A DNA stretch of 64,000 bases from contig KL197745.1 of the NCBI GenBank assembly GCA_000697665.1, forward strand, positions 44,442 to 108,441. Reading direction: 5' to 3'. Shown here piece by piece: positions 981 to 60,799 of the stretch. The notes below the pieces were generated by a model. It saw nothing but the letters and a program-made list of their open reading frames with translations, did no database searches and had not been told where the DNA came from. Every line of letters starts with the position of its first letter. The first letter of the stretch is position 1. This DNA is from Jaapia argillacea MUCL 33604 (lineage: Eukaryota; Basidiomycota; Agaricomycetes; Jaapiales; Jaapiaceae). A program made the translations under genes and the position numbers.

Positions 981-986
981 TCATAC

Positions 987-31750: not shown

Positions 31751-31762
31751 AGGCTATCAACT

Positions 31763-39918: not shown

Positions 39919-41451
39919 TTATCGTTGTTGCACTACAAGTGGAAGATGCTTCGACTTTCGTCGAGTCAAACCCAACGCCGACTGGATTCTCTGTTGAACC
40001 TTCGTCATGAATCGACCAGGTCCATGTGGCGTCTGCCCAACTAATTCCAAAGCACTTAGCAACTGAGGGTAAAAAAGAAGGAAGGGCGTACGAAGTGTTT
40101 CGGGAGCGATGCCTTCAGACCGGGGAAGCGAGCAGGAGCTCGACGTCGGCGTCGAGAGGGAGAGTTTGTTGACAATAGGGCGCAGCCGCTCTCGAGTATA
40201 AGTAAAAGCTCGCAAAAGGTTGAAAACTAACAAACGGGTTCGGGGATTAGAAGATATGTAAGGTAGACAGGAGCATAACGTACGATTTCTCTTCGGCGAC
40301 GGCTTCCGGTCTGAAAATACATAAGTTTGTCTTTCTCGACGCACCTAGCATGCGAAGAACATACTGAGTTCCGGGGGTGAATGAACGGCAGGGTGTGAGT
40401 TAGCAGCAAGCATTCGCTCCTGCTCTTCCTTCATTTCCCGTGCCCAAACGGCCTCCTCCTCAGCTTCCAGAGCTTCCTTGCGTTCCACGAATCCTTGAGC
40501 CAGCCTAATGAAGGAGAATCATCGACTATAGACACGATGCGAAAGGGAAGAATGGAAATCACTTTCGGAGTGCTTTCTCCTCTTCAAAGAACTCTAGAGG
40601 ATCAAGGAGAGAAGATACCTCGGACAGGTCATAAGTCATATCGACAATGACAGAGTCAGAAGGTTCAGCACACATGGTACCCAGAAGAAAGTTTGTGAAC
40701 TCCTCGTGACTTCCTTGACTTGATGCGACATCTTCGATATCCTCGCACTCAGCCTGTCCATGAACGAGAGTGGGATCCAGAAGATCGCGCTCTCCATCAG
40801 CCACCGGGTTTTCTTCTACCAACATCCTAGCTTGATCTTCATTCCGAAATTCTCTGTGGCGTGCAACTTCAGGAAATAGCATGACACCGCGGATCTTCGC
40901 ATCTTCGAATTCTGCAGGTAGGACTCGTACGTCGACGTACGACGTGGAGTGCAAGTAGCAGTTCTCCCAGGGAAGTGGCTCTCGTAGCCTGATGGGTTTC
41001 CGACCAGAGGGGTGTTCAGTAGTTGGCCAAAGAGGAGTACACATGCTCGACTCGCGACCATTTTTAATGCATGGCGAGGGGAGATCTTGAGCGATAAAAT
41101 ATATCCGACATTTCGTGAAAGGGTTGTTGTCTGATGGTAGACTATATGTCTACCAAATGCAATGTGAATCTATTCGTCAAGTAGAAATGCTATTGATCGT
41201 ACCCGCTCGACGAAGCCTACAAAAAACCTCCGTGGGAGACTGTCTGTGTTGAGCGCGTCGCTCACATCTTGTCCGAACAGATAGTCAACGGTTGCGGTGG
41301 GATTGGTAGAGAACACCACAATAGAGTGCATGCGTGGACTGTCGGTGACACAGTCCCATACCTCATCCGGATGCCTGTCGTCGATGGAGGAGATGTCCGA
41401 GTCGGAGAATGCACCAGCAGAAACAACCGAAGCTCGGTCAGATTCAGGCAT
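39919..41451 (-). CDS. Family X copy 1, unknown function
   Basis: Six exons by comparison with the other copies. Exon 1 starts MPESDRASVVS, contains RHPDEVWD and ends near GFVERV. Exon 2 holds the best conserved core (PSGRKPIRLREPLPWENCYL and DVRVLPAEF) and ends FFEEEKALRK. Exon 3 encodes an acidic predicted helix (EALEAEEEAVWAREMKEEQE). A 27-nt microexon and a Ser-rich exon with ITYTRERL-like sequence follow. The last exon ends with a basic tail (SALGLTRRKSKHLPLVVQQR). All junctions have canonical splice motifs. I do not recognise the family. The helix suggests protein-protein contacts, and the basic tail suggests a membrane- or nucleus-directing signal; both are inference. The copy appears intact. 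A remnant of a Y-type promoter lies upstream at 42190-42421. Confidence 0.75.
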
Positions 41452-41576
41452 TGCAAGTAGGAAGGAGGAAATGCTGTTGGAAAAGTTGAGGGGAGATGGG
41501 AAATGGTATCAAGTGCCACTGAGAGAAGGGCATCTTATCCTGGTGGTTGTTATCGAAATGGGCAGAGAATAAGAGT

Positions 41577-41599
41577 AGAGAATAAGAGCAGAACAATTG
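41577..41599 (-). promoter_or_regulatory. Conserved X upstream element, copy 1
   Basis: GAGAATAAGAGCAGAACAAT-type motif (plus-strand reading) 126 bp upstream of the X1 ATG. It is the best conserved block upstream of all six X genes and is immediately preceded here by a partial second GAGAATAAGAG. Confidence 0.6.
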
Positions 41600-42421
41600 T
41601 ACTTCCCCGACTCAAAGGAGGGTTCTGGCGAAGGGAAATGAACACGTTCAATACAAAAGAGCAGACATTGTGACAGTCACCTCGCGTCATAGTTTCCTCA
41701 TTGGCTTGAGAGTGTTTTTTTGAGTCGTCGAAGCTGGTCAGCGTCGTGCAGTAACCGACAGTCGACGTCGAGACACTGGATGTGCCAAACAATACTTTTC
41801 ACTTCTTGCTGGTCAGCCCAGAGTGTGTGATGAGAATGTTTGTCGTCTGCACTTACTTCGTCACTCTCTGTCACCCTCGGACCGGCTTTGGCGCTACTTC
41901 ACGTCATCACTCATCTTTCCCTGGATCGTCCTGCCCCATCTTTCGTCCGACCATTGAAACCACAACTCGTTATTTCCGCAAGCAATGGCCGCGCCGCCAT
42001 CCGCCGACGAATTGCAAACAGACTTTGTAGCGATCGTCGACTGACAGCTGTGAGGGTACATACATCTTCGCTTGTTCGTGTATAATAACACTGTGAACTA
42101 CTCATTTTCTTTCGCAATCCAACCCCTTGAAACCGTGATAACACCACACGAACTCGCCATGAGTCGGGGATGGGTGCTCGCCGCCGCTACGATAATGGCG
42201 AAGGGCGTGAGAGGGGCGTTGCAGGTCCACGCATTTGTGACTGCCAGTCACTTCGCGTTCGCAGGGGAGCACAAGGAGAGCATCTTCCGTTCGTCCCTAC
42301 AAAACTCAACAAAGGGTGAATATGTCTCCCTTGTTCTCCCTACTTATTGTCTGGACCGTAGTGATTTGCATATTATTCCCTGGACGGACTCGACAAGAAG
42401 CCGAGTTTTCGACCCATTTGT
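41600..42421. other. Upstream of X1 with remnant of a Y promoter
   Basis: No gene was seen. Sequence at 42190-42421 (including CTACAAAACTCAACAA and GAGTTTTCGACC words) aligns with the region upstream of Y1 (49380-49600) and Y2. An X-Y divergent pair therefore probably once existed here, and the Y gene has been replaced by the psi-DUF455 block that starts at about 42422. Confidence 0.55.
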
Positions 42422-43800
42422 TTCTGTGTCATGTACGATCCTGGGAGTGTTATGAACTGTCTTTCCCTGCTCTAATCGGATGACCAGACTGTGGAGCTGA
42501 GGCCGGTGTCGGAGGGTCCGTCGCGCCCTTCCATTTTTTAGTCGATCTATTCAATCTTGCTGCATTGGCAGATTTTACTGACCCCCACCATCTCCAACGC
42601 AACCGTTGCTACTTCGAAAAGTACCCATGATACTTAGAATGGATGAGTAACCCATATCCCCCTTGAAGCACCCGCATTGGTTGAGCGGGCGGTTCTGATC
42701 CTCAGCACCGATCCACCTCTCAAGGTATGCCCTCCAGACTTTATCTCGCACACATTCTCAACCTCCGTCTCCTTGTTCTTTCTTGATTCTGATGCACCAT
42801 TCTCAGGCGTCCCGAACGCGTTTCGCAGTCCACCACTTCCGTACCACCCAACTCTCCTCGATTGGATAATACGCAAAGAACGTACCTGATACACCGCATC
42901 GACATGAGTTGTGTATGACGAATGTCGTTGAGTTTGGAGCGGCAATGTTGGTGAGGTCGGTGAGGATGTATGCGGAGAGGCGAGGGTGAATGTAATTGAT
43001 GAGGCGAAATCGAATGTTAATGGAGAGGTGAGGCTGAAAGGAAAGCGAGACGAGAAGGCGATTGGGAAGAATCGTAGTAAAGTTCTCCCTCAAGGGAAGG
43101 GGGCCAAAGTATTTGAAAGGAGGTGTTATGATGCTCCGTGCAGTAGCGAGCATCGAACAATGGGCGTAAGTCCCTATCTTCATCTTTGTCTCACCACTTA
43201 CCCATTGCCCTCCATCTTGATAAGATCCGCCTCGCATACTTCCCCTTTTCAATTACCACATCCTGATCTCACGTCGTTGGGACATAACGGCACGATTTGG
43301 ACTTTGCCACCCAACACTCCCTCTAGCCATCTATTTCGATCTCACCAAAGCCGCTTTGGACGAAACTGGACATTTTTCGTTGCTGCGAGCGAGGTTACGC
43401 TGGGTGTATGGAAATTTGGCCCTGCATGTAGTGTCGTGGGAGAGTGCGTGGGTTACTCGGGACTCATTGGTGAGTAGGTTCGCACTGTTGCTGGTGGCTA
43501 CACCCACTGTCGGTCGAATGATGATATTGACCGATCTCTGACAGTTGCGCATTTAGTACACGAAGCCACAGTGCACATCAACTCGAAGAATTATCGACGG
43601 GTGTTTGAAGTCGTCCTCGACCAAACAAAAGCCTTATTAGCATCGAACGAAGACATCCAGAAAGCCATCGAAACAATAACGTATGACCTCGGAAAGCCAG
43701 GCTCGTCCGTGGAGCCTCTTTTCCTCCTAAACTACCTTCCGGCAGCTTCGCCCAATGGTCAGCATGGACACGTCTCCTAGAGTTTGCTCGCAAATTTCAC
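42422..43800 (+). pseudogene. Broken DUF455 copy 1
   Basis: Nearly identical to 53529-54920 and clearly derived from the DUF455 half of the gene at 60800-62896. Recognisable pieces are VARTRFAVHHF-type sequence near 42810, LPQGKG near 43090, SIEQWA near 43160, the remains of the 12-nt microexon near 43210, WDITARFG-like sequence and HFSLLRARLRWVYG near 43380, and WESAWVT. After LVHEA (about 43560) it diverges into an unrelated frame (VHINSKNYRRVFEVV). Exons lie in inconsistent frames, the microexon's 3' donor reads AT instead of GT, and the C-terminal third of DUF455 is absent, so no ferritin-like protein can be made. The left breakpoint at about 42422 is shared with the second copy. Confidence 0.8.
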
Positions 43801-44074
43801 GTCACCAAGCCTACAGTCTCCCTAAAGGGTATCAACGTATATGTCAACGTTGATGATTGTACAGTTGGTATTTGACTGCGGGAGGTGTAAGGAGTAACAT
43901 CTGGAAGTGTTAATGTTGGCGATTGGCGATTGTTTGGGTCGAGGAGCCCATGATTAAGGTCGGTATCAGTGAGTGTAGGGTACTTGGTCTGGGATCCGGA
44001 GTACAGAGCAAATACAGTACAAATAGTAGATAACTGATGAAGGGCGGACAACGATGTGGATGTGCCACCCGAGA

Positions 44075-45067
44075 TTATCGTTGTTCCACTCCAAGCGGAA
44101 CACACTTCGAATTCCGGGGAATCAGACCCAATGCGGATCGCATCTTCTGTTGCACCGTCGACATGAATCGCGTAGGCCCACGCGGCCCAGCTAAATCCTA
44201 AGGGTTAGCACTTGGAGATGGAAGAGAAGGAAAGACGCACATTTTGTGTTGGGAGTGATAACTTCCGACTGGGGGAGTGAGCTAGAGCTGGACGTCGATG
44301 GCGACAGGGAAAATTTGTTGAACATAGACCCCGGCCGCTCTCGAGTACGAGTATAAACTCGCAAAACATTGAAACCTGCCAAAGGAATTCGGTGATCAGA
44401 AGGCATTCAGGGAAGACACTGCAAGAAATAACGTACGATTTCCCTTCGGTAGCGATTTTCGCCCTTGAGATACAATAGTATATCTCCATAGGCGAAAAGA
44501 GCATGCAAAGAACGTACCTAGCTCCGTGGGTGTATCGGGGGAATGCTGTGAGTTCGCAGCAAGCATTTGCTCCTGCTCTTCCTTCATTTCCCTTGCCCAG
44601 CCGGCCTCCTCCTCAGCTTCCAGAACTGCCTTGCGTTCAATGAACTCTTGGGCCAGGCTAATCAAGGGATCGTCAACAGCTGATACAACATGAAGGGAGC
44701 GGAGGAAATCACTTTCGGATGAAAATAAATTCGACAATCCGTGTAAAAATCGTCGTGCAATGACAGACTGAAATGCTACCATTTGGACATAAATCCAAGA
44801 GCCAAGGAAAAATGTGATCCACTTTACCTCCTGGACGAATCCTACATAAGGCCTGCAGGGAAGGCTTCCCGGATTGAGCGATGCGCTCACATGTTCCCCG
44901 AGGAGAGAGTCAAGGGTGGAGGTCGGGTTAATGGAGAACACCACAATGGAGTAGATGCGTGGGCTGCGAATGACTCGGTCCCACACCTCATCCGGGTGCC
45001 TGTAGTCGATGGAGATATCAGAGTATGTTTGAGCAGAAAGAACCGAAACTCGGTCAGATTCAGACAT
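44075..45067 (-). pseudogene. Family X copy 2, internally deleted
   Basis: Exon 1 (MSESDRVSVLSAQTYSDIS...) and the 3' exons (EAEEEAGWAREMKEEQEQ; Ser-rich exon; basic end SKCVPLGVEQR) are present and very similar to copy 5. About 600 bp covering nearly all of exon 2 are missing. The junction near 44720 joins TCACTTTCGGAT to GAAAATAAATTCGAC. The deletion removes the conserved PSGRKP core, so the product, if any, would lack the central domain. The promoter element is retained. The deletion is secondary because copy 5, in the sister block, still has the segment. Confidence 0.75.
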
Positions 45068-45176
45068 TGCAAGCAGTGGCAAGGAGGAATGGTAGTTGAT
45101 GAGGTGGGAGAGAGATTGGTGATGTGATCAGCGAGAGTAAAAAATCTCATACTGCATGTTCTTATTGAAACCAGAA

Positions 45177-45198
45177 GAGAATAAGAGCAAAACAATTG
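45177..45198 (-). promoter_or_regulatory. Conserved X upstream element, copy 2
   Basis: GAGAATAAGAGCAAAACAAT lies 110 bp upstream of the X2 ATG, one mismatch from the commonest form. Confidence 0.55.
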
Positions 45199-45660
45199 AG
45201 GAAAGGCTCGGGAGCGGGAACGTTGTAAGCCAGCAGCAACTTGATCATGAACGACAGCGCTCGTCTTAGTCACAGTCACCACTGTAACGTTCCGTCATCA
45301 TTACTTACTCCAGAGAAGACCCAACTTGTGTTAATCAGATCGTCCTACTCGATTATCTCCTGGGACTAGGTTGTCTTATAAGCTCCCTAGCCTCGCTACA
45401 AGTGGATCGAGATACATGCCAAATCCGAGAATTGTAAAATTTTGGCATTCGACACCGCCGGAGTATCACGCAGTAGGCCGCCCAGTCCGTGATAATAATA
45501 TTCATGTTGGCGATTGAGGCTCGTTTGGATCGAGAAAATGTGTTGATTAAAATATGTAGAAGTTAGCTTAGAGCACATCGTTCGAAAGTCCAGAGGGTGT
45601 TAGAAGACATAGCAATCAACAAATGGTGGAAGGTCGACAAGAATGTGTACAACCGCTCAA

Positions 45661-47242
45661 TTATTGTTGTCCCACTGCGAGTGGAAGACTCTTCGACCTC
45701 GGTCGAGTCAAGCCCAATGCGGACCGGATCTTTTGTTGCACAGTCGTCCTGAATCGACTGGGCCCATGAAGTGTCCGCCCAACTAAAGCCGAAACCATTA
45801 GCACTGCCAGTGGGAAAGTTGAAGAGAAGTAACACCGCACTTTTTGACTTTGGGGTGATGATTTCAGTCTGGGGATGGGCACTCGCGCTAGACCTCGATG
45901 TGGACAAGGAAAGTCTGTTGAACATAAGGCGCAGCCACTCTCGAGTACGAGTAAAGGCTTCCAAAAGGTTGAAACCTGAGAAATGAATTCGGGGATTAGA
46001 AGTCGTCTAGACCCGTGGACAGTAATATAACATACACTTTCTCTTCGGCAAGGGCTTTCGCTCTGAAGATACAACAATTCGTCTCCGTCGGAAAACAAGG
46101 ATGCAAAGGACGTACCTGGTTCCGAACATGTATCGGCGGAAGGTTGTGAGTTAGCAGCAAGCATCCGGTCCTGCTCTTCCCTCATTTCTCGCACCCAAAC
46201 AGTCTCCTCCTCAGCTTCTAGAACTGCCTTGCGTTCCATGAAATCTCGGGCCAGCCTAATCAAGGAGAATCGTCAACAATAGAAACCATCGGAAGTGACG
46301 AGAGGAAGTCACTTTCGGATAGCCTTTTCCTCTTCAAAGAACTCTTGAGGATCGGGAAGCGAGGTTACCTCGGACAGGTCGTAAGTCGCATCGACTGTGA
46401 CATGATCAGTAGGTTCGGCACACATGATACCCAGAAGGAGATTTCCGATCTCCTCGCGACTTCCTTGCTGTGATGTAGTATCTTCGATATCCTTGCACTC
46501 GGCCTCCCCGTGAAATAGAATGGGATCCGGCAGGGTGTGGTCTGCATCGGGTTTCCGCGCAGATTCCAGCTTTCCTTCGACCAACGGTGTTGCTGGCATC
46601 CGTTCTTTCCATAAAGCCGACTTCCGAGCTTGATCTTCATTCCGCAACTCCCTGTGACGTGCCCCCTCGGGAAAGAACATGACGCCCTTGATCTTCGCAT
46701 CATCGAAATCTGCGGACAAGACTCGCACGTCGACGTACAACGTTGAGTGTAAGTAGCAGTTGTCCCATGGTAGGGGCTCCCGTAACTTGATGGGTTTCCG
46801 ACCAGAGGGGTGCTCGGTGGTTGGCCAAAGAGGGACACACATGCTAGAATCGCGAACGCCATCGGCAGAGGGCGAGGGGAGACCTTGTGTGAGGAAATAA
46901 ATTCGACATTCCGTGTATGGATCGTCACGTAACGGCAGGCCGTGCATCTGACCAATGGATGTGAATCCTCCTGCCAAGTATGAAAGTGATCCACCTCACC
47001 TCCTGAACAAAGCCGGCATAAGTTCTGCGGGGAAGGCTGTCCGGATCGAGCGCTTCACTCACGTCTTCTCCGAACAGGGAGTCAATGGTCGCAGTGGGAT
47101 TGATAGAGAATACAACCATGGAGTGGATGCGTGGACTGTTGGCGACACCATCCCACACCTCATCTGGATGCCTATGATCGATGGAGGAGATGTCAGAGAA
47201 TGCATCAGCAGAAACAACTGAAGCGTGGTCAGACTCAGGCAT
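45661..47242 (-). CDS. Family X copy 3, unknown function
   Basis: All six exons are present with canonical junctions. Exon 1 runs from MPESDHASVVSADAFSDISS to GFVQEV. Exon 2 reads HGLPLRDDPYTECRIYFLTQ, then PSGRKPIKLREPLPWDNCYL, and ends FFEEEKAIRK. Exon 2 is longer than in copies 1 and 4, with an insert around SALWKERMPATPLVEGKLE that copy 5 shares. Exon 3 is the acidic helix (AVLEAEEETVWVREMREEQD). The last exon ends SALGLTRPRSKSLPLAVGQQ. No internal stop or frame break was seen in the exons. It lies head-to-tail with X2 and X4. Function unknown. Confidence 0.75.
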
Positions 47243-47351
47243 TGCGCCGAGTGGCAAGGTGGCAGGGTCGTTGATGAGGTTGAAGAGAGATGAGTGATGT
47301 TATGAAGCGAGGGCGATACATCTTTTCCTGCTCGTTGATATCGAAACCAGA

Positions 47352-47374
47352 AGAGAATAAGAGCAGAACAATTG
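47352..47374 (-). promoter_or_regulatory. Conserved X upstream element, copy 3
   Basis: GAGAATAAGAGCAGAACAAT followed by TG, 110 bp upstream of the X3 ATG. This is the consensus form. Confidence 0.6.
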
Positions 47375-47700
47375 AGAAAAGGCAGAGCATTGGGAGCCTT
47401 GTAAGTAGGAAGTAAGTTAGGTACTAGGTAGGCGTTCTCTCGTTTTTGTTCCACTTCCAGTTCCGAAGAGATATAATCACCGTTACGTAATACCAGAACG
47501 TTCTGTCCAGTGGGCCAAGCAGGAACGTTTCGCGGTAAACTTCCTGTCATATTGTTGGTGATCGAGGATCGAGGACAGGAGACCTTGATTGATGTACACA
47601 GCGGTCGGGTAGGGTACATGATTGGGTAGTCCAGAGGGTGTCAGAAAGCATGGAAGTAAGTAAAGGTGAGGGGGGGACAACAATGTGTACGCCACTCGAG

Positions 47701-49208
47701 CTATTCCACTACGAGTGGAAGAGGCTTCGACTTCCGTTTGGTCAAACCCAACGCGGACCGGATCTTCTGCTGTACCGTCGACCTGAATCGACTAGGCCCA
47801 TGGTGTGTCCGCCCAACTAAATCTTGAGCAGTTAGCACTTGACGGCGGAACAGAAGGTAGGACACACATTTTGACTCGGAGGTGATAACTTCAGCTTGGG
47901 GAAGTGAGCTAGAGCTGGACACCGATGTCGACACGGGAAATTTATTGAGGACAGGTCCCAGCCACTCTCGAGTACGAGTCAAAAGTTGCAAAAGCTTGCA
48001 ACCTACCAAAGGAATTCGGCGATCAGAGGAACTCGGTGACGATAAGAAAAGAACACACGATTTCTCTTCGGCGAGGGTTTTTGGTCTTGAAATAAAACAG
48101 TTTGTCTCCGTCGGCGAAATGAGCATGGGAAGAACGTACCGAGTTCTGGAGGTATATCAGCGGAAGGCTGTGAGTTAGCAGCAAGCATCCGTTCCTGCTC
48201 TTCTTTCATTTCCAGTGCCCAACCAGCCTCCTCCTCAGCTTCCAGAGCAATCTTGCGTTCCACGAACTCTTGGGCCAGCCTAATGAAGGAGAATCATCAA
48301 CAACAGACACAATGTGAAAGGGAAGAGTGGAAATCACTTTCGGAGTGCTTTCTCCTCTTCAAAGAACTCCAGAGGATCAGGAAGAGAAGATACCTCGGAC
48401 AGGTCATAAGTTGCATCGACAATGACATGGTCAGAAGGTCCAGCACACATGATACCCAGAAGCAGGTTTCCGAACTCCTCGCGACCTCCTTGACTTAATG
48501 CGATATCCTCGCACTCAGCCTCCCCATGAGCGAGAGGGGGATCCGGGAGATCGCGCTCTCCATCGGCCACCATGTTTCCTTCTACCAACATCCTAGCTTG
48601 ATCTTCATTCCGAAATTCTCTGTGGTACGCAACCTCGGGACATAACATGACACCGCGGATCTTTGCATCGTCGAAGTCTGCAGACAAGACTCGCACGTCA
48701 ATGTACAACGTGGAGTGCAAGTAGCAGTTCTCCCAGGGCAGCGGCTCTCGTAGCCTGATGGGTTTCCGGCCAGAGGGGTGTTCGGTAGTCGGCCAAAGAG
48801 GAGTACACATGCTAGACTCGCGACCATCTTTAACGCATGGCGAGGGAAGACCTTGAGCGATAAAATATATCCGACAATCCGTGTATGGATCGTCGTATGA
48901 TGGCAGGCCATAAGTCTACCAAAAGACACGTGAATCTATTCGTCAAGAAGAAATGATATTCACCGTACCTTCTCGATAAAGCCGACAAAAGCCCTCCGTA
49001 GAAGATTGTCTGTGTTGAGCGCTTCGCTCGCATCTTCTCCGAACAAAGAGTCAATGGTTGCGGTGGGGTTGATAGAAAATGCCACGATAGAGTGGATGCG
49101 TGGGCTGCGGGTGACACAGTCCCATACCTCATCCGGGTGACGATCATCAAAGGAGATATCGGAGAACGTTTGAAGAGAAGCGACTGAAGCCCTGTCAGAT
49201 TCTGGCAT
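47701..49208 (-). CDS. Family X copy 4, unknown function (reference model)
   Basis: The best resolved copy. Exons are 49208-48969, 48915-48338, 48279-48140, 48085-48059 (27 nt), 48002-47868 and 47816-47701, giving 411 residues with phases 0, 2, 1, 1, 1. Order: N-terminal region (SFDDRHPDEVWD, SINPTATIDSLFGEDAS); core (YGLPSYDDPYTDCRIYFIAQ, PSGRKPIRLREPLPWENCYL); acidic linker; helix (ALEAEEEAGWALEMKEEQER); microexon DQKPSPKRNR; Ser-rich region; basic tail SALGLTKRKSKPLPLVVE. I do not recognise the family. The ATG is chosen because AMPESDR is common to the copies. A Y gene starts 495 bp away on the other strand, so the two share one intergenic promoter region. Confidence 0.8.
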
Positions 49209-49703
49209 TGCAAGCAGCAAGGTGGAATTATCGTTGGTAAGGTCGAGGCGAGATGGACGATGTTTTCAAGTGAGAGAGGGGCATCTTGTCCTGGTGATTG
49301 ATATCGAAATGGGCGGAGAATAAGGACAGAACAATTAGCGAAAGGGGAGAGGCGCCTTGTAGGTCCACGTATTTGTGACTGTCTGATGTCTTGTGCCCGA
49401 TTTGGTGATTGACGCCACCTTGAAACAATCTTGTTGCGTTCCATCACCAGGAGTGACCCATATTCCGTTCAGCTCGACAAAACTCAACAACGGCTGGATA
49501 TTTCTCCCTTGTTCTCCTTACATTTTTGTCTGGCCCGTTATTGCGTCCTATTGTCTGGATGAACTCAACAAGAACCCGAGTTTTCGACCTATTTGTCTCT
49601 AGATGTCATGGATGATCCTGTGAGGGTTATAAGTTGTCCTGAGCTGGTCTAATCGCAATAGAATATCTCCCATCACACGTTGACCTGCCAATCTTACTCA
49701 TCC
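49209..49703. promoter_or_regulatory. Divergent promoter region X4 / Y1
   Basis: A 495-bp space between X4 (minus) and Y1 (plus). The X-side block at 49316-49336 (GAGAATAAGGACAGAACAAT) lies 108 bp from the X4 ATG. The Y-side block around 49400-49600 is shared with the X6/Y2 spacer and with the orphan sequence at 42190-42421. Confidence 0.6.
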
Positions 49704-50890
49704 ATGAACCCTTGCGCCCACCCTCCTCGCGACTCTTCACCACATTTCAGGGCATTGCCCCTGAACGTCGGTGATGTCTGCCTTACCTTCGGTTCAATCA
49801 AGTTACCCATTGTCAAGCTGATCAATGGAAGTCGATCTACTGTGACACAAATCACTCGCCGAACTCAAAGAGATCTTGAACAGGACTTCACTCGAAACAA
49901 GCTGCGTCCCAGCATCGTTGGCGAAACCCGGCCTAAGAGCGCTGGGCTGGACTGGCAGCCCTCTGTATGGTATATGGCAACCTTCGGAAACGATCCTTTA
50001 ACCTCCCTTCCAAAGCTGTACCAGCATTTTCTTATGGCCGTGAATTTGCCTGCAAAGGTGGATCACATCCATACGACTCCTGAGTGGCAGTGCGCTTCGC
50101 AGCAGTGGGTTTTGGCGTTATGTTACCAGCCTCCAAAACATTTCCCATTGAGCGAAAGGTTTACCACGAAGGGAAACGCCGAGGGCACCTCTAGCACTGA
50201 GTATCGGGTTGACCCCGACATGATGTCTTTGCTGGAAGCTTTCAGTGAATCGAGGAGCCTTCAATGGCATCGTCTGGGAAGGCCGAAGCAAGCTCAGTTC
50301 ATAGCTCAATTTAATGTGGGCGTTTCTGTCAGTACCTTGTCGAACTTAACTTAACCAATGCGGCGCAGAGACATGTCGTTAACCGGACCGACGAGGTAAC
50401 TATCTCTACCTCCCATGAACTCTCGTCCTAACACTCAAAACTTCAGCTCGCCAACTCTGTCGGAAGACCTCCCAATTTCCAGTCGCATACTCGAGCAGTA
50501 GTCACACGTTCGGTAAGCTGTTGATCCATCTGCAGTTTGTTCTGCCCCTGAAGTACTGCAAACTAGCCTGATCAGAGCAGATGCAGCCCATCTTCTATCC
50601 GTTCGAAGATGTCGAACCTCTTGCGCGAATTTCCCCTCCCGCGGTTCCAACAAAGCCGCACCGACCTCAATTCTTTGGCCAATGTCAGTCGGACTTCGTC
50701 CAGTACAACACATACAGCTGCAAAGCCATCGACGACTCGTCACCGACCTACACCCGTCGATGTCGCCGCTGCAAAGCGGCCTCACGCTTGCCGTTCTTCG
50801 CACCCTAGTGTCGCGGATCATAACCCATACGCTCTGCTCGCTTCCCTCCCACCAACCCCTCCATCGTCTCCCCCGATCTTAGCTTGCTGA
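49704..50890 (+). CDS. Family Y copy 1, unknown function
   Basis: Four exons. 49704-50315 encodes 204 residues including YGDVCLTFG-type sequence (here NVGDVCLTFGSIKLPIVKLI), VWYMATFGNDPL, LPKLYQHFLMAVNLP and TPEWQCASQQWVLAL. A 27-nt microexon, 50369-50395, encodes RHVVNRTDE. 50447-50512 encodes LANSVGRPPNFQ. A last exon starts near 50576. In the last exon two frames stay open in both Y copies (one ending SSPPILAC, one LHRLPRS), and I cannot decide between them, so the C-terminus is uncertain (about 335-340 residues). Start: the ATG at 49704 is conserved in copy 2. I recognise no domain. The gene is divergent from X4 and co-duplicated with it. Confidence 0.7.
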
Positions 50891-51084
50891 TCCTACTTGT
50901 TGATATGATCATGATCCCCATCCGTCTATAATGGGGCAACTTCCCCAGACCTGGAGTCCACGATTCCGCTGTTATTTATTCAAGATACTCTATACACTCC
51001 ATTTTTCTGTTTCCGATTATTCGAATGTACGCTTAATATTCTCAGGTGAGATCATTATCACCTCCGAAGCTATTGTGATGTCAT

Positions 51085-52200
51085 GTGTCCTGCCGATGGA
51101 ATGACGTTAACCAGGAGCAGGAATGAAGGCGTTGTCGCCAAGTTTGTGAAGTACCGTTGTCCATCGGAGAGCCACGGCTGTTTCTCCAACCTTCCTTTCT
51201 GTGGACGCACCCTCATCTGAAATTGGGATAACCGGACTTCGAGCAACGCGTGCGCGTCTAGGAATGGCCGGGAGAGACAAGACTGAAAATGCGACAAAGA
51301 CACAGCCGGGCAAGGTAGACGTCGAGAGCGAGTTGTGCTTGAGACTTTCGGCTGGCGGGCGCTGTGACAGAGGTACTGGAGGAAGGAAGGCTGCCGGGTC
51401 AGCCTGAGGGAGTCGGTAGAAACTTCCTTGACGTCATCCTCGACGAAGCGGTGGATGGAGAAAGGGATATAACACCTGGTATCAGAAAGAGGAGTCTCTT
51501 CGACGCGGGTTCGACACTCACCAGAGCCACCCGGCTAAGCTCGGAGACGACCTTGCTCTCCTTGCGGGGAAACCAAATGAGGTCCTTGGATTCCGGAATG
51601 ACTTTCGGGATGGATGCGTCGAAATTTTTAACCGAAGAATGGGACCCGTCAGGATGGCTTGAAATCGAAGGTATAGGACGGGGGAACTTGAAGTAACCAC
51701 ACCGAAGATTGTTTTACATCGTGATCACGAACATTGGCTTGCTCGAGCCTCGGAAAGGTATAGTCGATGTCATAAGTATTTTCTGTACAGGTTGACGTTA
51801 GCAAGGAGCGAAAATTGAGTATATTGTTGCCAAGGTGAGACGTACCACACCCCTTGGGGACGAAGGATTCCTCTCCAACGTCACTCTCTGTGGGTCATGA
51901 TCCGAAGTTGGGTTCACGGACTTCAAGCGATGCGTAGACATATAGGAACGGTGATACCATGAAGACATCCCTTTTAGCTTCTGAAACCAGGCCTGAATCG
52001 TTGGCGAATGGAGCAATCGTTGAGGTCTGGCGAGGCAAGACGGAAAATATGGACCAAGACATGGCCGGCCAAGGCAGACGTCGGGTGCGAGCTCTACTTG
52101 AGACTTTCCACTGGCGGGCATTCTGACGGAAGTACAGGAGGAAGGCCGCCTCAACAAGGCTGCCAAGGATCCGAGATTTCGTAGGGCCTTCGCTGGCACC
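51085..52200. repeat. Two diverged copies of an unrecognised ~350-bp segment
   Basis: Segments about 51100-51420 and 51800-52160 are alignable, sharing words such as GACGTTA, GAGACTTTC and AGGAGGAAGG. Read on the minus strand they give similar residues (FQSCLSRPF / FPSCLARPQ; RPQKGRLEK / DPQRVTLER), but frames are broken and differ between copies. They look like remains of a duplicated minus-strand gene placed 3' of Y1. The start of the same segment is recognisable downstream of Y2 near 60640. Confidence 0.45.
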
Positions 52201-52697
52201 ATCCTTGACAAAACTGTGAACGGGGAATGGCATTTAACACCTGGAACGTATCAGCAAGGGAGTATCTTCTACATGGATTCGGCACTCACCAGATCTACTG
52301 GTAAGATTGGAGGCGACCGTGTAAACCGTGTTTCGAGGGAGGAGCAGCGTAGATAAGCTAGTTCGGTGGAGTAACACAGTGTATCATTGGTAAGGAATGA
52401 GTTCAAATTATTGGAAGACACCCAGGGTCCTCTCTGGTGGCAGAGATGCGGTACCTTGAAGGAACGACACCGAGGACTCAGATGTGTTGCCCTCAATTAA
52501 GCGTGTCGTTGAGCATTCATTATCCCAAGGACTCATTCGAAGTACTATCAGCGGAAGCGCCAGGCATACAGTACAATCAGCAAGAATGAATACAGGGCTA
52601 AGTCTGTGGAGGGTGCTGAGGGTGCTATTTGTCGAAGCTGGGTTTGACTTTGTGAAATTTCAGATTCGTCGTTGACATCTCTCTCTTCTTCCTCAAG
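52201..52697. other. No gene seen
   Basis: Short frames only, between the duplicated fragments and the broken Rieske remnant. Confidence 0.4.
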
Positions 52698-53330
52698 ATG
52701 GAATTCGTCGAGCACGCATCTCCAGTCTTGAAGATGGCGCTCTACACCAACAAAACCACAGAATCGCATCCTATTCACAACTCCTGCCCACTCTCCGATC
52801 GTCAAGGCCAACATATACACCAATTCTTCGTTTCTGTTCCGACTTTCATCACACCTGCGGTTATACCACGTCTAGGAATTATGAAGACCCAGCGAATCAA
52901 ATCTTGTGATGGTGGATACTTGTCCTCACCTGGGAGTTGATATGGTGCCATATGCTGAGATTGAGAAGTACGAGTCGTCCCGATCGCTATCTACCCTTAC
53001 TGGTGAGCATCTACGAGGGCAATTTATTCCTTCCCTCCGACTTAAATTCACTATAGCTATTCTGTTTGACCTGACCTGGGATGGTAGAGAGTGAAACGGG
53101 ATCGAGTGCGCGCACTTTGTTTGTCTGCAGCAACGGTGAGCATCTGTGAGGCTGTCTCCTCCTTCACTTATTCAACCTGAATTCGTCGTAGTTATCACCT
53201 CCGATGTCTAAGTTTGCTCGAGTACAGGGAGAGATACATGTACGTCGAGACGACGAGAGAAGGAACGCATTGGAGCCTTTTGGAACTGTCCCCGGTTTTC
53301 GAAGGTCAGCCACACCTGTCCGTCCTTTAT
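52698..53330 (+). pseudogene. Remnant of the Rieske half of the Rieske-DUF455 gene
   Basis: Starts ATGGAATTCGTCGAGCACGC, matching the presumed start of the intact gene at 60800. It keeps the first half of the Rieske cluster site (CPHLGVDMVPYAEIEK near 52925-52970), but the second half has eroded: LSTLTG stands where the intact gene has VCPWHR. The following exon (ESETGSSARTLF and later EYRERYMYVETTREGTHWSL) is in broken frames. The DUF455 half does not follow directly; instead the psi-DUF455 block begins about 200 bp further on at 53529. It could not bind a [2Fe-2S] cluster. Confidence 0.7.
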
Positions 53331-53528
53331 TTGCAGATTTTGATTGGTCGACCCATACTTATTGGTAGCAGTGCTAACCTTCTTCACTGTGCATGATTCC
53401 CGGTTCGAGTACAGGTCACTCGCCGTCCTTTACTGCTCGTCCATTGTCATGCCCATCCGTTGGAACGATGAGACTCTCCATACACCATCAACTGAAGCTG
53501 CTGCTTTTTCGCCCTCACGTGTTTCAAA

Positions 53529-54920
53529 TTCTGTGTCATGTACGATCCTGGGAGTGCTATGAACTGTCCTTTCCTGCTCTAATCGGATGACCAGACTGTG
53601 GAGCTGAGGCCGGTGTTGGAAGGTCCGTCGCGCCCTTCCATTTTTTGGTCGTTTTATTCAATCTTGCTGCATTGGCAGATTTTACTGACCCCCACCATCT
53701 CCAACGCAACCGTTGCTACTTCGAAAAGTACGACGACCCATGATAGAATGGATGAGTAACCCATATTCCCCTTGAAGCACCCGCATTGGCTGAGCGGGCG
53801 GTTCTGATCCTCAGCACCGATCCATCTCTCAAGGTATGCCCTCCAGACTTTATCTCGCACTCATCGTCAACCTCCGTCTCCTTGTTCTTTCTTGATTCTG
53901 ATGCACCATTCCCAGGGTCCCGAACGCGTCTCGCAGTCCACCACTTCCGTTCCACCCAACTCTCCTCGATTGGATAATACGCAAAGAACGTACCTGATAC
54001 ACCGCATCGACATGAGTTGTGTATGACGAATGTCGTTGAGTTTGGAGCGGCAAGGTTGGTGAGGTCGGTGAGGATGTATGCGGAGAGGCGAGGGTGAATG
54101 TAGTTGATGAGGCAAAATCAAACGTTAACGGAGAGGTGAGGCTGAAAGGGAAGCGAGATGAGAAGGCGATTGGGAAGAATTGTAGTAAAGTTCTCCCTCA
54201 AGGGAAGGGGACCAAAGTATTTGAAAGGAAGTGTTATGATGCTCCGTGCAGTAGCGAGCATCGAACAATGGGCGTAAGTCCCTATCTTCATCTTTGTCTC
54301 ACCACTTACCCATTGCCCTCCATCTTGATAGGATCCGCCTCGCGTACGTCCCCTTTTTCAATTACCACATCCTGATCTCACATAGATGGGACATAACAGC
54401 ACGATTTGGACTTTGCCACCCAACACTCCCTCTAGCCATCTATTTCGATCTCACCAAAGCCGCTTTGGACGAAAATGGACATTTTTCGTTGCTGCGAGCG
54501 AGGTTACGCTGGTTGTATGGAAGTTTGGCCCTGCATGTAGTTTCGTGGGAGAGTGCGTGGGTTACTCAGGACTCATTGCTGAGTAGGTTCGCACTGTTGC
54601 TGGTGGCTACACCCACTGTCGGTCGAATGATGATATTGACCGATCTCTGACAATTGCGCATTTAGTACACGAAGCCAGAGTGCACATCAACTCGAAGAAT
54701 TATCGACGGGTGTTTGAAGTCGTCCTCGACCGAACAAAAGTCCTATTAGCATCGAACGAAGACATCCAGAAAGCCATCGAAACAATAACGTATGACCTCG
54801 GAAAGCCAGGCTCGTCCGTGGAGCCTCTTTTCCTCCTAAATTACCTTCCGGCAGCTTCGCCCAATGGTCAGCATGGACACGTCTCGAGTTTGCTCGCAAA
54901 TTTCACGTCACCAAGCCTAT
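53529..54920 (+). pseudogene. Broken DUF455 copy 2
   Basis: Sister of 42422-43800, differing at only a few percent of positions by eye over about 1.3 kb. It retains LPQGKG (about 54200), SIEQWA (about 54265), the 12-nt microexon with intact GT donor (about 54332-54343), HFSLLRARLRWLYG (about 54490) and LTIAHLVHEA (about 54650-54675). It then passes into the same unrelated VHINSKNYRRVFEVV frame as copy 1. The C-terminal metal-ligand region of DUF455 is missing in both, so the lesion predates the block duplication. Small differences (GT versus AT at the microexon donor) show later independent decay. Confidence 0.8.
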
Positions 54921-55188
54921 AGTCTCCCTAAAGGGTATCAACGTATATGTCAACGTTGATGATTGTACAGTTGGTATTTGACTGCGGGAGGTGTAAGGAG
55001 TAACATCTGGAAATGTCAATGTTGGCGATTGGCGATTGTTTGGGTCGAAGAGCCCATGATTAAGGTCGGTATCAGTGAGTGTAGGGTACTTGGTCCGGGA
55101 TCCGGAGTACAGAGCGTGTTAGAAAATACAGTACAAATAGTAGATAACTGATGAAGGGCGGACAATGATGTGTATGTGCCACCCGAGA

Positions 55189-56735
55189 TTATCGTTGTTC
55201 CACTCCAAGCGGAACACGCTTCGAATTCCGGGGAGTCAGACCCAATGCGGATCGCATCTTCTGTTGCACCGTCGACATGAATCGAGTAGGCCCACGCGGC
55301 CCAGCTAAATCCTAAGGGTTAGCACTTGGAGATGGAAGAGAAGGAAAGACGCACGTTTTGTGTTGGGAGTGAGCTAGAGCTAGACGTCGATGGCGACAGG
55401 GAAAACTTGTTGAAGATAGACCCCAGCCGCTCTCGAGTACGAGTATAAACTTGCAAAAAGTTGAAACCTGCCAAAGGAATTCGGTGATCAGAAGGCATTC
55501 AGGGAAGACACTGCAAGAAAATAACGTACGATTTCTCTTCGGTAGCGATTTTCGCCCTTGAGATACGATAGTTTATCTCCATGGGCGAAAAGAGCATGCG
55601 AAGAACGCACCTAGCTCCGGGGGTGTATCGGGGGAATGCTGTGAGTTTGCAGCAAGCATTCGGTCCTGCTCTTCCTTCATTTCCCTTGCCCAGCCGGCCT
55701 CCTCCTCAGCTTCCAGAACTGCCTTGTGTTCAATGAACTCTTGGGCCAGGCTAATCAAGGGATCGTCAACAGCTGATACAACGTGAAGGGAGCAGAGGAA
55801 ATCACTTTCGGATTGCCTTCTCCTCTTCAAAGAAGTCTTCGGGTTCAGGAAGAGAGATTATTGTGGAGAGGTCGTAAGTCGCATCGACAGTCACATAATC
55901 TGAAGGTTCAGCACCCATGATACCCAGGAACAGGTTTCCGACCTCCTCGCGACCTCCGTGGATTGATGGAGCGTCGTCGATATCCCCGGACTCAGCCGCT
56001 CCAGAAGACGGAGTTGGATCCGGGAGGCTGTCATCTCCGTCAGGCTTCCGGCAAGAGTCCGCGTTCTCTTCTACTAAACCCTGAGGTGTCGCTGGGGCCC
56101 ATTCTTTCCACAACGCAGACTTCCTAATTTGATCTTCATGCTGGAACTCCATATGGTGTCTGGCCTCTGGAAAGAACATGACGCCGCTGATCTTCGCATC
56201 TTCAAAATCTGCAGACAAAACCCGAACGTCGACATACAGCATCGAGTGTAAGTAGACATTCTCCCAAGGTAGTGGCTCTCGTAGCCTGATGGGTTTCCGA
56301 CCAGAGGGATGTTCAGTGGTGGGCCAAATGGGGACACACATGCTCGACTCGCGAAGACCGTCGGCGGAGGGCGAGGGGAGACCTTGCGTGAGAAAATAAA
56401 TTCGACAATCCGTGTAAGGATCGTCGCGCAATGGCAGGCCGAAATGCTACCAGTTGGACATGAATCCAAGCGCCAAGGAAAAAGGCGATCCACTTTACCT
56501 CCTGGATGAATCCTACATAAGGCCTGCGGGGAAAGCTTCCGGGATTGAGCAATATGCTCACATCTTCGCCAAGGAGAGAGTCAAGGGTGGAGGTAGGGTT
56601 AATGGAGAACACCACAATGGAGTAGATGCGTGGGCTGCGAATGACTCGGTCCCACACCTCATCCGAGTGCCTATAGTCGATGGAAATATCAGAGTATGGA
56701 GCAGAAAGAACCGAAACTCGGTCAGATTGAGACAT
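55189..56735 (-). CDS. Family X copy 5, unknown function, altered 3' exon
   Basis: Exons 1-4 are intact and conserved: MSQSDRVSVLSAPYSDISID, then GLPLRDDPYTDCRIYFLTQ, then PSGRKPIRLREPLPWENVYL, ending FFEEEKAIRK, and the helix AVLEAEEEAGWAREMKEEQD. In the Ser-rich fifth exon it lacks 22 bp that its sister copy 2 has, between two copies of GGGAGTGA (near 55370). The loss is not a multiple of three, so the final basic exon would be read in another frame or spliced differently. It is probably expressed with a changed C-terminus, or is a beginning pseudogene. It still has the full central core that copy 2 has lost. Confidence 0.65.
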
Positions 56736-56852
56736 TGCAAGTGACAACTTGAAGGAGGCCCGGGCACGGTTGTTGACGAGGTTGAAGAGAGACGGGTGAT
56801 GTTATGAAGCGAGAGCAAAGCATCTTGTCCTGCTGCTCATATCAAAACCAGA

Positions 56853-56875
56853 AGAGAATAAGAGGAGAACAATTA
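56853..56875 (-). promoter_or_regulatory. Conserved X upstream element, copy 5
   Basis: GAGAATAAGAGGAGAACAAT lies 118 bp upstream of the X5 ATG, with one mismatch to the commonest form. Confidence 0.55.
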
Positions 56876-57183
56876 AGAATAGGCAGAGGTCAGGATTGGG
56901 AGCCTTGTAATTAGAAAGTGGTAAGGTTTATCGGCGTTCTCATGTTTTGTTTCACTTCCGACGAAGTCTGATCACCGTTACGTAATAACATAGCCGTCCA
57001 GTGGGCCAAGCAGCGATGTTCTGCAACATTCATATTGTTAGTGATCGAAGATTGTCTGCAACGAGGACAGGAGGCCTCGATTGACGTACGTAGATGTTTG
57101 GTAGGGTACATGATTTGGTAGTGTTAGAAAGCATGGAAGTAATAAAAGGTGACAGTGGGACAACAATATATACGCCACTCGAG

Positions 57184-58701
57184 CTATTCCACTACGAGTG
57201 GATGACACTTCGACTTTCGTTGGGTCAAACCCAGCGCGGACCGGATCCTCTGTTGCACCCTCGTCCTGAATCGATTAGGTCCATGAGGGGTTCGCCCAAC
57301 TAAAATCCAAAACTGTTAGCATATGAACTTGAAGGTCGAAAGAAAGGGACACTGCACATTTTGAGTTCGGGGTGATGACTTCAGTCTGGGGATGGGTGCT
57401 CGCGCCAGACCGTGATGTCGATAATGAGAGTTTGTTGAACATGAAGCGCAGCCGCTCTTGGGTGCGAGTAAAGACTTGCAAAAGGTTGGAACCTAGTAAT
57501 GAATTTCGGGATGAAAAGACGTCCAGGCGCGCTGACGGGACCATAACATACGATTTCTCTTCGGGAAGCGTTGTTGCTCTGAAATTCGACGGTTTATCTC
57601 CACCAGCGAAACGAGCATGCGAAAGACGTACCTGTTTCCGAAGGCGCATCAGCAGAAGGCTGTGTGTTAGCAGCAAGCATCCGCTCGTGCTCTTCTCTCA
57701 TTTCCCGGGCCCAACCAGCCTCCTCCTCAGCTTCCAGAACTGCCTTGTGTTCCAAGAACTCTCGGGCGAGCCTAATCAAGGAAAATCGTTAACAACAGAA
57801 CCAATGGGAAGTGACGAGAGGAGGTCACTTTCGGATAGCCTTCTCCTCTTCAAAGAAACCTTGAGGGTCGGGAGGAGAAGATATCTCGGACAGGTCGTAA
57901 GTCGCATCGACGGTGACATGATCAGAAGGTTCGGCACACATGATACCCAGGACCAGGTTTCCAATCTCCTCCGGCTCAGCATCCCGATGAACTAGAGTGG
58001 GATCCGGCAGGTTGTGGGCTTCATCAGGTTTCCATGCAGACTCCACACTTCCTTCCGCCAACGGTAGCCGTTCGTTCCGCAAAACTACCCTCCTAGCTTG
58101 ATCTTCGTCCCGGAACTCCCGGTGATGCATTGCTTCGGGAAAGAACATGACACCAGTGATCTTCGCGTGTTCGAAATTTGCTGACAAGACTCGAACGTCA
58201 ACGAATAACGTCGAGTGTAAGTAGCAGTTGTCCCATGGTAGTGGCTCTCGTAACTTGATGGGTTTCCGACCGGAGGGGTGTTCAGTGGCTGGCCAAAGGG
58301 GAACGCACATAGTAGACTGGCGGACACCGTCGGTAGAGGGAAGACCTTGTGTGATAAAGTAAATCCGGCATTCCGTGTATGGGTCGTCATATAAAGGCAA
58401 GCCGTGTTTCTACCGATGAAACGTAAATCCATGCACCAAGCGAAGGGGCTATCCACCTCACCTGCTGGACAAAGCCAACATAGGCCCTGCGGGGAAGGCT
58501 GGCCGGGTTGAGTGATTCGCTCACATCTTCTCCGAAGAGTGAGTCAAGGGTTGCGGTGAGGTTGATAGAGAATGCTACAATAGAGTAGATGCGTGGGCTG
58601 TTGGTGACACGATCCCACACCTCATCCGGATGCCTGTCGTCGATGGAGATATCGGAGAATGTCTGAGCAGAAACAACCGAAACTCGGTCAGATTCAGGCA
58701 T
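57184..58701 (-). CDS. Family X copy 6, unknown function
   Basis: A full set of exons. MPESDRVSVVSAQTFSDISI starts exon 1. Exon 2 begins HGLPLYDDPYTECRIYFITQ, continues PSGRKPIKLREPLPWDNCYL and ends FFEEEKAIRK, but is shorter than in copies 3 and 5 (LPSTDGVRQ instead of LPSPSADGVRD; a reduced linker before AEPEEIGNLVLGIM). The helix exon reads AVLEAEEEAGWAREMREEHE. The last exon ends RSALGLTQRKSKCHPLVVE. No frame break was seen. It is divergent from Y2 with 476 bp between the two ATGs, repeating the X4-Y1 arrangement. Function unknown. Confidence 0.75.
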
Positions 58702-59177
58702 TGCAATTGGCAAAGGGGAATGTCGCTGATAGAGGGAAGACGGGCTATGTTATGGAGCAAAGGCAAAGCATCTTGAGATTGAAACGAGTAGAGAATAAGA
58801 GCACAACAAATCGAGAAAAGCACCGGGGCCTTGTAGGTCCATGTATTTGTCTTGAGGCCTTGTGCGATTTCGGTGGTTTGACGCCACTGATCCGCGAAAC
58901 AATCTTGTTGCTTTTCATCTGTTCCGTTCACCTGCACAAAACTCGACGTCGACTCATTGGCAATATGATTCTCTTGTTCTGCCTATCTTGTTGTTTGGGG
59001 ACTGCCGCTGTTGTCTGGGTCACGCCTTCTTCAAGAAGACACCAAGTTTCGAAGGCCTTTTTGTTCTTGATACAGTATGTCATATGATTCTATGAGGTGG
59101 TCTTAACCTCCTTTTCCCTGCTTCAAACACCGTAGAACATCCCACACCATACTTTGAGCTGCCGATCTTATCCATCC
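58702..59177. promoter_or_regulatory. Divergent promoter region X6 / Y2
   Basis: A 476-bp space. The X-side block at 58790-58812 (GAGAATAAGAGCACAACAAA) lies 89 bp from the X6 ATG. The Y side (about 58865-59110) aligns with the Y1 upstream region (GACGCCAC...GAAACAATCTTGTTGC). Confidence 0.6.
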
Positions 59178-60374
59178 ATGAACCCCTGCCCCCATCCTCT
59201 TCGCGACTCTTCACCACGTTTCAGGATGTCGCCCCTAGACTACGGCGATGTCTGTCTCACCTTTGGATCCATCAAGCTCCCCATTGTCAAGTTAATCAAT
59301 GGAAGCCGATCTACAGTGACACAAAACACTCGCCAAACACAAAGAGATCTTGAGCGCGACTTCACTCGAAACAAGCTACGTCCCAGCATCGTTGCTGAAG
59401 CCCGACCTGAGAATGCCGGGCTGGGCTGGCAACCAGCTGTGTGGTACATGGCAACTTTCGGAAACGATCCTGTTTCTTCTCTTCCGAAACTATACCAGCA
59501 TTTTCTTATGGCTGTGAATTTGCCTGACAAGGCGGATCACATCCGTACAACTCCTGAATGGCAGTGTGCTTCGCAGCAGTGGGTTTTGGCGTTGCAATAC
59601 ACACCCCCGAAACATTTCCCTGCGAGCGAACGATTTATCGAGAAAGGGAACGCCGAAGGAACCTTCAGGACCGAATATTGGGTGGAAGCCGATATGATGC
59701 GTTTGCTCGAAGATTTCAGCGAGTTGAGACGCCAGAAATGGCAGAATCTGGAGAAGCCGAAGCTAGATCGGCTGATAGCTCAATTCAATGTGAGTATTTT
59801 TTTCAATCTCAATGTCTTGTCGGGATTAACACGACGGATGCGCTATACAGAGACATATCGTTGACCAGGCAGACAAGGTCAGCAACTATCTCGATCTCCC
59901 ATAAACCCGTTATAACGCCCAAAAATATTTAGCTCGCCAATTCTGTCGGAGAATCTCCCAGCTTCCAGTCGCATGCTCTAGCCGCAAGGGGTCTTCTAGT
60001 AAGCTGATGATTGTTCTCAAGTTTCCGACGGTCCTGACGTTACAAACCAGCTTGATCAAGGCAGATACAAGCCATCTTCTGTCCGATCAAAGATGTCGAA
60101 CCTCTTGCGTGACTATCCCCTCTCCTGGCGGCAACGAAGCCGCACCAACCTCACTTCTTTGGCCAATGACAGTCGGACTTCGCTCAGCACAACACGTACA
60201 GCTCCAAAGCCGTCGACGACTCGTCACCGGCCCACACCCGTCGATGTCACCGCTGCGAAACGACCTCACGTCTGCCGCCCTTCGCAACCTAGTGTCACGG
60301 ATCATAACCCATACGCTCTGCTCGCTTCCCTCTCACCAACCCCTCCATCGTCTCCCCCGATCTTAGCTTGTTGA
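59178..60374 (+). CDS. Family Y copy 2, unknown function
   Basis: A paralogue of Y1 with the same exon plan. Exon 1 (59178-59789) is the same 612 nt and encodes DVCLTFGSIKLPIVKLINGS, VWYMATFGNDPV, LPKLYQHFLMAVNLPD and TPEWQCASQQWVLALQ. The 27-nt microexon encodes RHIVDQADK, and the third exon LANSVGESPSFQ. A final exon follows in which two frames are open. Differences from Y1 are mostly conservative in exon 1, suggesting both copies are or were under selection. Its last exon acceptor differs from Y1 by a small shift, so the C-terminus is not settled. It lies immediately upstream, on the same strand, of the intact Rieske-DUF455 gene. No known domain recognised. Confidence 0.7.
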
Positions 60375-60799
60375 ACGCGGCTCCCCTCCCTGTCGATAGC
60401 ATCATGATCGTCATCCGTTGACAATGGAGCAACTGCCCTAGTTCTCGAGTTCACTGGTACGATTCTGAAACGACCTCATGTTGGTCCTGTTTTTGCTGTT
60501 TCTCTTATTTATTCAAGCCACTCTACGTACACCCTCTACTTTTCTGTTTCCTATGCGTAATAAATATCCCCAGATGAGATCGTTATATCACCTCTGAAGC
60601 CACCTTATTGAATGCTATGTGAGTATGTGTCCTGTCTATGGACTGGCGTTAACGAGGAGTGGGAAGGAGGGTGTTGAGTAGGTGTCTTAATGCTGGGTCC
60701 TGGCGTTGGAAGCTGAGTTGGTGACTTGGACTTGATGAAATTTCGGGCAAAGAGAAATCGCCGAAGCACGACCTGAGGACTAACGCCATCTGCCTCGCA
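60375..60799. other. Spacer between Y2 and Rieske-DUF455 gene
   Basis: No gene. The part around 60530-60700 aligns with the 3' flank of Y1 (about 51000-51130), including TTTCTGTTTCC and GACTGGCGTTAACGAGGAG-like words. The right end is presumably the promoter of the Rieske-DUF455 gene. Confidence 0.5.

What the first reader, a model, noticed from the sequence alone, without database searches (positions are those of the whole stretch)
39919..58701. Six-copy array of an unrecognised six-exon gene family (X)
Six minus-strand paralogues share exon order, phases, a 27-nt microexon, a conserved PSGRKPI(R/K)LREPLPW core, an acidic helix and a basic C-terminal tail (SALGLTxRKSK). I cannot connect the protein to any known family. 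The C-terminal frame stays open in most copies although alternative frames acquire stops (copies 4 and 6), which argues for real coding selection. Clustered, fast-duplicating families of this kind are candidates for lineage-specific interaction or conflict genes.
Basis: partly seen in the sequence, partly recalled or inferred. Interest (0 to 1): 0.75.

Follow-up and report, generated by a model that had tools for sequence, protein, structure and literature searches.

The report
Paired unknown fungal gene families
A fungal chromosome end carries a cluster of real but unnamed genes that faces copies of a second unnamed gene, and the same pairing recurs elsewhere in the genome, so the two probably work together.

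Summary
The core is in five of six: c2 lost 578 nt of exon 2, and c5 lost its tail by a 22-nt frame-shifting deletion. dN/dS is 0.22-0.38 in 10 of 10 pairs of the five modelled copies, so X codes under purifying selection. I found 19 X loci and 7 Y genes genome-wide (lower bounds). All 7 Y lie divergently beside an X, starts 319-637 bp apart, though X differs by up to 76% between units; one X locus has no Y found and one Y scrap has no X. X and Y distances correlate (r 0.96, 3 of 5040 permutations). X is acidic, Y mostly basic. Neither matches Pfam, NCBIfam or PDB significantly. Best reading: a co-expressed two-protein module with one constant partner (Y) and a tandemly diversified one (X). 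The pairing is shown; the biochemical role is inferred. Structure predictions never returned.

The parts
39919..41451 (-). X copy c1, 419 aa; exons 41451-41203, 41149-40563, 40504-40365, 40310-40284 (27 nt), 40226-40092, 40040-39919
44075..45067 (-). X copy c2; 578 nt of exon 2 missing (junction 44720/44721), core absent
45661..47242 (-). X copy c3, 433 aa; exons 47242-47000, 46947-46313, 46255-46116, 46062-46036 (27 nt), 45975-45841, 45782-45661
47701..49208 (-). X copy c4, 411 aa; exons 49208-48969, 48915-48338, 48279-48140, 48085-48059 (27 nt), 48002-47868, 47816-47701
55236..56735 (-). X copy c5; 22-nt deletion in exon 5 shifts the frame, tail lost; exons 56735-56499, 56446-55806, 55750-55611, 55556-55530 (27 nt), 55467-55355, 55304-55236
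57184..58701 (-). X copy c6, 412 aa; exons 58701-58462, 58409-57829, 57771-57632, 57578-57552 (27 nt), 57492-57358, 57299-57184
49704..50890 (+). Y1, 342 aa, head-to-head with c4; exons 49704-50315, 50369-50395 (27 nt), 50447-50512, 50567-50890
59178..60374 (+). Y2, 342 aa, head-to-head with c6; exons 59178-59789, 59851-59877 (27 nt), 59933-59998, 60051-60374
49209..49703 (.). 495-bp X-Y intergenic region (c4/Y1), presumed shared promoter
58702..59177 (.). 476-bp X-Y intergenic region (c6/Y2), presumed shared promoter
42490..43480 (+). Fragment of the neighbouring DUF455 gene carried by duplication
53597..54589 (+). Second fragment of the DUF455 gene

Best explanation
X and Y are the two halves of one gene module. 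SHOWN: both look like spliced protein genes under purifying selection, and each of the 7 Y genes found in this genome stands in divergent orientation beside an X with start codons 319-637 bp apart. INFERRED: the pair is expressed together from a shared bidirectional promoter, and the two soluble, non-secreted, probably nuclear proteins bind each other, the acidic X (core plus acidic linker and charged helix) to the mostly basic Y (core plus basic, Ser/Pro-rich tail). Y is the constant partner, one per unit; X is the variable partner, present 1-4 times in tandem, mostly near contig or chromosome ends, so that one Y could work with several X versions. The biochemical output (chromatin or RNA regulation, or self/non-self recognition) is not determined.
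For: Genome searches with X and Y: 7 of 7 Y lie beside an X, all divergent, on C37 (two), C7 (one) and C4 (four); searches started from distant members added one 135-nt Y scrap on C9. In the stretches compared, no other gene family is shared by all units. X and Y distances track each other, r 0.965, 3 of 5040 permutations. Purifying selection: X 0.22-0.38; Y1-Y2 0.32, bootstrap 0.22-0.46, core 0.19; six C4 X pairs 0.19-0.45. Charge: X net -10 to -25 in 18 of 18 models, partial ones included; Y core net positive in 6 of 7; full Y1 and Y2 pI 10.1 and 9.8, window X pI 4.9-5.8, highest 19-residue hydropathy 1.45. Top over-represented hexamers in six X-Y gaps (c6 left out) are AGAACA (14, expected 3.65) and GAACAA (14, expected 4.84), each in 6 of 6.
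Against: Co-duplication of an ancestral pair also gives adjacency and parallel distances without any interaction. One X locus (C4:1889k) has no Y found and one Y scrap (C9) has no X. Two of seven Y are disturbed: C7 (one stop, one frameshift) and C4:1758 (one in-frame stop). One Y core (C4:1680) is acidic. Y exons 2-4 show dN/dS 0.70, little constraint. The AGAACAAT block also stands upstream of copies c1, c3 and c5, which face no Y, so it may be an X promoter element rather than a sign of pairing. No expression, binding or structure data; both AlphaFold jobs were unfinished at the last polls.
Confidence: 0.5

Rival explanations
1. Inherited adjacency only: an ancestral X-Y neighbourhood was copied as a block several times and X then multiplied in tandem; the two proteins have separate, ordinary functions.
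For: Blocks with X and Y were duplicated together in the window (45504-51134 against 55019-60676, 73%); parallel X and Y distances are what block copying predicts; near chromosome ends such copying is common (recalled).
Against: X and Y are the only genes shared by all units in the stretches compared although X differs by up to 76% between units; divergent orientation is kept in 7 of 7.
Confidence: 0.25
2. A conflict or recognition module: poison-antidote, spore killing or fusion compatibility, with X as the diversified determinant and Y as its partner or antidote.
For: Tandem X copies of uneven age (94.6% to about 70% DNA identity), decayed copies (c2, c5, C7 Y), position near a telomere, restricted and uncharacterised families.
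Against: No sign of positive selection in pairwise dN/dS; no toxin-like match; no phenotype data.
Confidence: 0.14
3. X and Y are the cargo or machinery of an undescribed two-gene mobile element.
For: The same two genes recur at separate places with unrelated flanks.
Against: No inverted repeats bracketing the unit in the three loci scanned; no transposase match in X or Y; units are few, old and mostly on one contig.
Confidence: 0.07
4. X and Y are diverged mating-type homeodomain partners.
For: Divergent pair layout as in Agaricomycete HD loci (PMC8305134, passages).
Against: No homeodomain in X or Y; the genome's homeobox matches are a divergent pair on C2 and one on C3.
Confidence: 0.02

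Closest known systems
Agaricomycete HD1/HD2 mating-type gene pairs
   Same: Divergently transcribed pair with paralogous pairs (PMC8305134, passages seen); heteromeric nuclear proteins (recalled)
   Different: X and Y have no homeodomain match; the genome's homeobox pair lies on C2
wtf killer meiotic drivers of fission yeast
   Same: Clustered, duplicating, multi-exon family with decayed copies (PMC5478261: listing and start of abstract only; otherwise recalled)
   Different: wtf is one gene with two products (recalled); here two separate genes face each other; no sequence comparison with wtf was made
PemK/MazF toxin family
   Same: Only my by-eye impression of a GDI...RPxII pattern in Y
   Different: PF02452 matches nothing in the genome at E up to 10; Pfam scan of seven Y sequences gives no family
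BmrR ligand-binding domain
   Same: Weak profile match of Y, best E 0.013, 64 profile positions
   Different: Not significant and no support from Pfam

Membership tests
HD1/HD2 mating-type pair | homeodomain in each protein | tested here: not met
   No Pfam family in X c3 and c4 or in seven Y sequences; homeobox hits only on C2 and C3
HD1/HD2 mating-type pair | divergent transcription from a short intergenic region | tested here: met
   7 of 7 Y-X pairs, 319-637 bp
HD1/HD2 mating-type pair | flanked by mip1 and beta-fg | not tested
   Not searched
DNA transposon | terminal inverted repeats around the unit | tested here: not met
   Three loci scanned (C7, C4:1823, C4:1758); five inverted pairs of 14-17 nt, none bracketing the unit
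DNA transposon | transposase | tested here: not met
   No such Pfam match in X or Y
PemK/MazF | PF02452 profile match | tested here: not met
PemK/MazF | SH3-like barrel fold | tested here: inconclusive
Killer meiotic driver | kills progeny that lack it | not testable with these tools
   Needs crosses
Real protein-coding family | purifying selection and frame-keeping indels | tested here: met
   dN/dS 0.22-0.38 in 10 of 10 pairs; exon 1 and 2 length differences are multiples of three in 5 of 5 modelled copies; exceptions are exon 5 of c5 (22 nt) and exon 2 of c2 (578 nt)

The most novel reading that the evidence does not exclude
X-Y is an undescribed two-gene recognition or selfish module of basidiomycete-like fungi: a constant Y and a tandemly diversified X set, mostly near chromosome ends, comparable in logic to HD mating pairs or poison-antidote drivers but built from two unrelated, unnamed protein families.
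Probability: 0.17. Interest if true: 0.85.

Novelty: new variant of a known kind. Interest (0 to 1): 0.52.

Why it matters
A fixed head-to-head pairing kept while both proteins diverge to about a quarter identity is a testable lead to function for two families that sequence search could not name. If confirmed it gives a constant-partner/variable-partner system in fungi whose specificity can be tested directly, and it shows that unknown tandem arrays should be read together with the gene facing them.

Tried and rejected
Naming by homology: Pfam (c3 and c4, none; eight X members, best E 0.095; seven Y members, none), NCBIfam (five proteins, one chance-level match, E 0.26) and PDB (none for X; Y profile, 19 sequences up to E 10, best BmrR at 0.013, set aside as not significant). 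A PemK/MazF idea for Y failed by sequence. Viral contigs gave no X relative. No Rfam family at gathering score and no tRNA in the window. A 5.8S rRNA search to place the organism found nothing. Paper searches: 11, 9, 0, 0 and 8 of 50 papers listed; nothing in those titles and abstract starts describes this pair. No collection of fungal genomes or proteins was on hand, so absence elsewhere is not claimed.

Dropped rows: the weak X match C1:345867 (E 0.77) was modelled (score 54) and dropped. c2 was left out of trees, dN/dS and charge counts; C4:1889 was left out of the distance comparison because it has no Y; the pair C4:1824/C4:1889 has saturated dS and no ratio. Models of C4 copies cover mainly exons 1-3; C4:1754 needed doubtful extra introns (probable decay), C4:1708 contains a run of N, and the starts of C4:1756 and C4:1689 are uncertain, so the 319-bp gap of the C4:1756 pair is approximate. 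The Y tree left all four inner branches open, so distances were used instead of topology.

Full report
SETTING. The window is bases 44442-108441 of contig C37 (286,819 bases) in a 43.7-Mb, 95-contig genome. Short GT-AG introns of 50-62 nt and a divergent homeobox pair on C2 suggest a basidiomycete-like fungus; this is my inference, no taxon name was available. C37 begins with an irregular telomere repeat, so the array lies about 84-103 kb from a chromosome end. Twelve further X loci lie within about 217 kb of the end of contig C4 (1,898,765 bases), whose last 150 bases hold only two TTAGGG units, so that this end is a telomere is not shown. One X lies well inside C7.

THE ARRAY. Five copies were modelled with six exons each and a 27-nt microexon. 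Four are full length (c1, c3, c4, c6; 411-433 aa). c5 has lost 22 nt in exon 5, which shifts the frame and removes the basic tail. Self-comparison shows how the array grew: an older block (45504-51134 against 55019-60676, 73%) and a recent one (42422-44720 against 53529-55813, 94.6%). The duplications carried fragments of the neighbouring DUF455 gene (61.6-62.9 kb, PF04305 E 1.7e-28 and 7.4e-9) to 42.5-43.5 and 53.6-54.6 kb (66%).

CODING. NG86 dN/dS is 0.22-0.38 in 10 of 10 pairs of c1, c3, c4, c5 and c6, with bootstrap upper limits at or below 0.52. By region it is 0.14 (N-terminus), 0.19 (core), 0.39 (acidic linker), 0.26 (end of exon 2), 0.38 (exon 3) and 0.48 (exons 4-6). Introns are 65-78% identical on average. 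X is therefore very probably a real gene family, and its tail is the least constrained part.

THE PARTNER. A plus-strand frame beside c4 and its twin beside c6 give Y1 and Y2: both 342 aa with exon lengths 612/27/66/324. Y1-Y2 dN/dS is 0.32 (bootstrap 0.22-0.46); 0.19 in the core but 0.70 in exons 2-4. A closing motif like NPYALL...PPSPP can be read in Y1, Y2, C7, C4:1758 and C4:1707.

GENOME-WIDE. I found 19 X loci: C37 6, C7 1, C4 12; the tool gives lower bounds. Y has 7 plus a 135-nt scrap on C9 without X in the 9.5 kb fetched. Each of the 7 Y is the divergent neighbour of an X. Start-to-start gaps for c4, c6, C7, C4:1681, C4:1708, C4:1756 and C4:1824 are 495, 476, 555, 637, 448, about 319 and 522 bp, and these units hold 4, 2, 1, 4, 4, 2 and 1 X. 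The one X locus without a detected Y is C4:1889k. A translated comparison of the unit stretches found 14 cross-unit hits outside X and Y, none shared by all units; they include a 24% F-box-like pair (C37, C4:1823) and a 38% pair (C4:1758, C4:1823). In the nucleotide comparison the matches between C37 and C7, C37 and C4, and C4 and C9 fall on X and Y. Between-unit protein distance reaches 0.76 for X and 0.80 for Y, and the two matrices correlate at r 0.965 (3 of 5040 permutations reach it; c2 and C4:1889 left out).

PROTEIN CHARACTER. X is acidic in 18 of 18 models (net -10 to -25; partial models included); Y cores are net positive in 6 of 7, the C4:1680 core being acidic. No X or Y of the window has a long hydrophobic stretch (highest 19-residue mean 1.45). 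Basic clusters that look like nuclear signals by eye occur in tails of both families, for example in C4:1680-group X and the Y beside it.

PROMOTER LEAD. In six X-Y gaps (c6 left out as paralogous to c4) AGAACA and GAACAA rank first and second among hexamers against a second-order Markov expectation. AGAACAA resembles HMG-box sites (recalled). The same block stands upstream of c1, c3 and c5, which face no Y, so it does not prove a shared promoter.

MECHANISM. The simplest account of fixed divergent adjacency, parallel divergence, purifying selection on both genes and mostly opposite charge is a co-expressed two-protein module with constant Y and diversified X (0.5). Interaction and shared promoter are inferences. 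Co-duplication without coupling is the main rival (0.25).

KNOWN OR NEW. No significant match in Pfam, NCBIfam or PDB. The layout resembles Agaricomycete HD pairs (PMC8305134, passages), but no homeodomain was found in X or Y and the genome's own homeobox pair is elsewhere. Fungal sequence collections could not be searched, so homologues may well exist under 'hypothetical protein' names.

Noticed in passing
window 31766-35941 (-): Single open frame of 1392 aa ending in a CHAT domain (PF12770, E 2.5e-32), in a stretch of markedly low GC (0.39-0.42 against about 0.50); a 98-bp tandem repeat lies next to it at 31557-31751.
   Followed up: partly
window 61000-62900 (+): DUF455 (PF04305) gene at the edge of the array; a CPWHRYDFDLKTG stretch upstream looks like a Rieske motif by eye. 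Another DNA relative lies at C37:219783-220533.
   Followed up: partly
window 5461-6195: A 735-bp stretch matches its own reverse complement at 83.6%, a long palindrome.
   Followed up: no
window 6258-8138 and 8767-10628: Tandem pair (78%) of genes with weak LRR matches below cut-off; a second old duplication at 14657-16026 / 21560-22943 (66%).
   Followed up: no
window 984-3896 (-): Four long open stretches in one frame separated by single stop codons; no significant Pfam family in them; perhaps a decayed gene.
   Followed up: no
window 44399-45100 (-): In core-deleted copy c2 the unspliced frame stays open from exon 1 through both former introns into exon 3 (234 codons); may be chance.
   Followed up: no
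L050 1-80: Telomere repeat of C37 is irregular, mixing CCCTAA and CCTAA units.
   Followed up: no
window 38141-39283 (+): F-box-like gene (Pfam F-box E 0.16, below cut-off) beside c1 has a 24% relative beside the C4:1823 X-Y unit.
   Followed up: no
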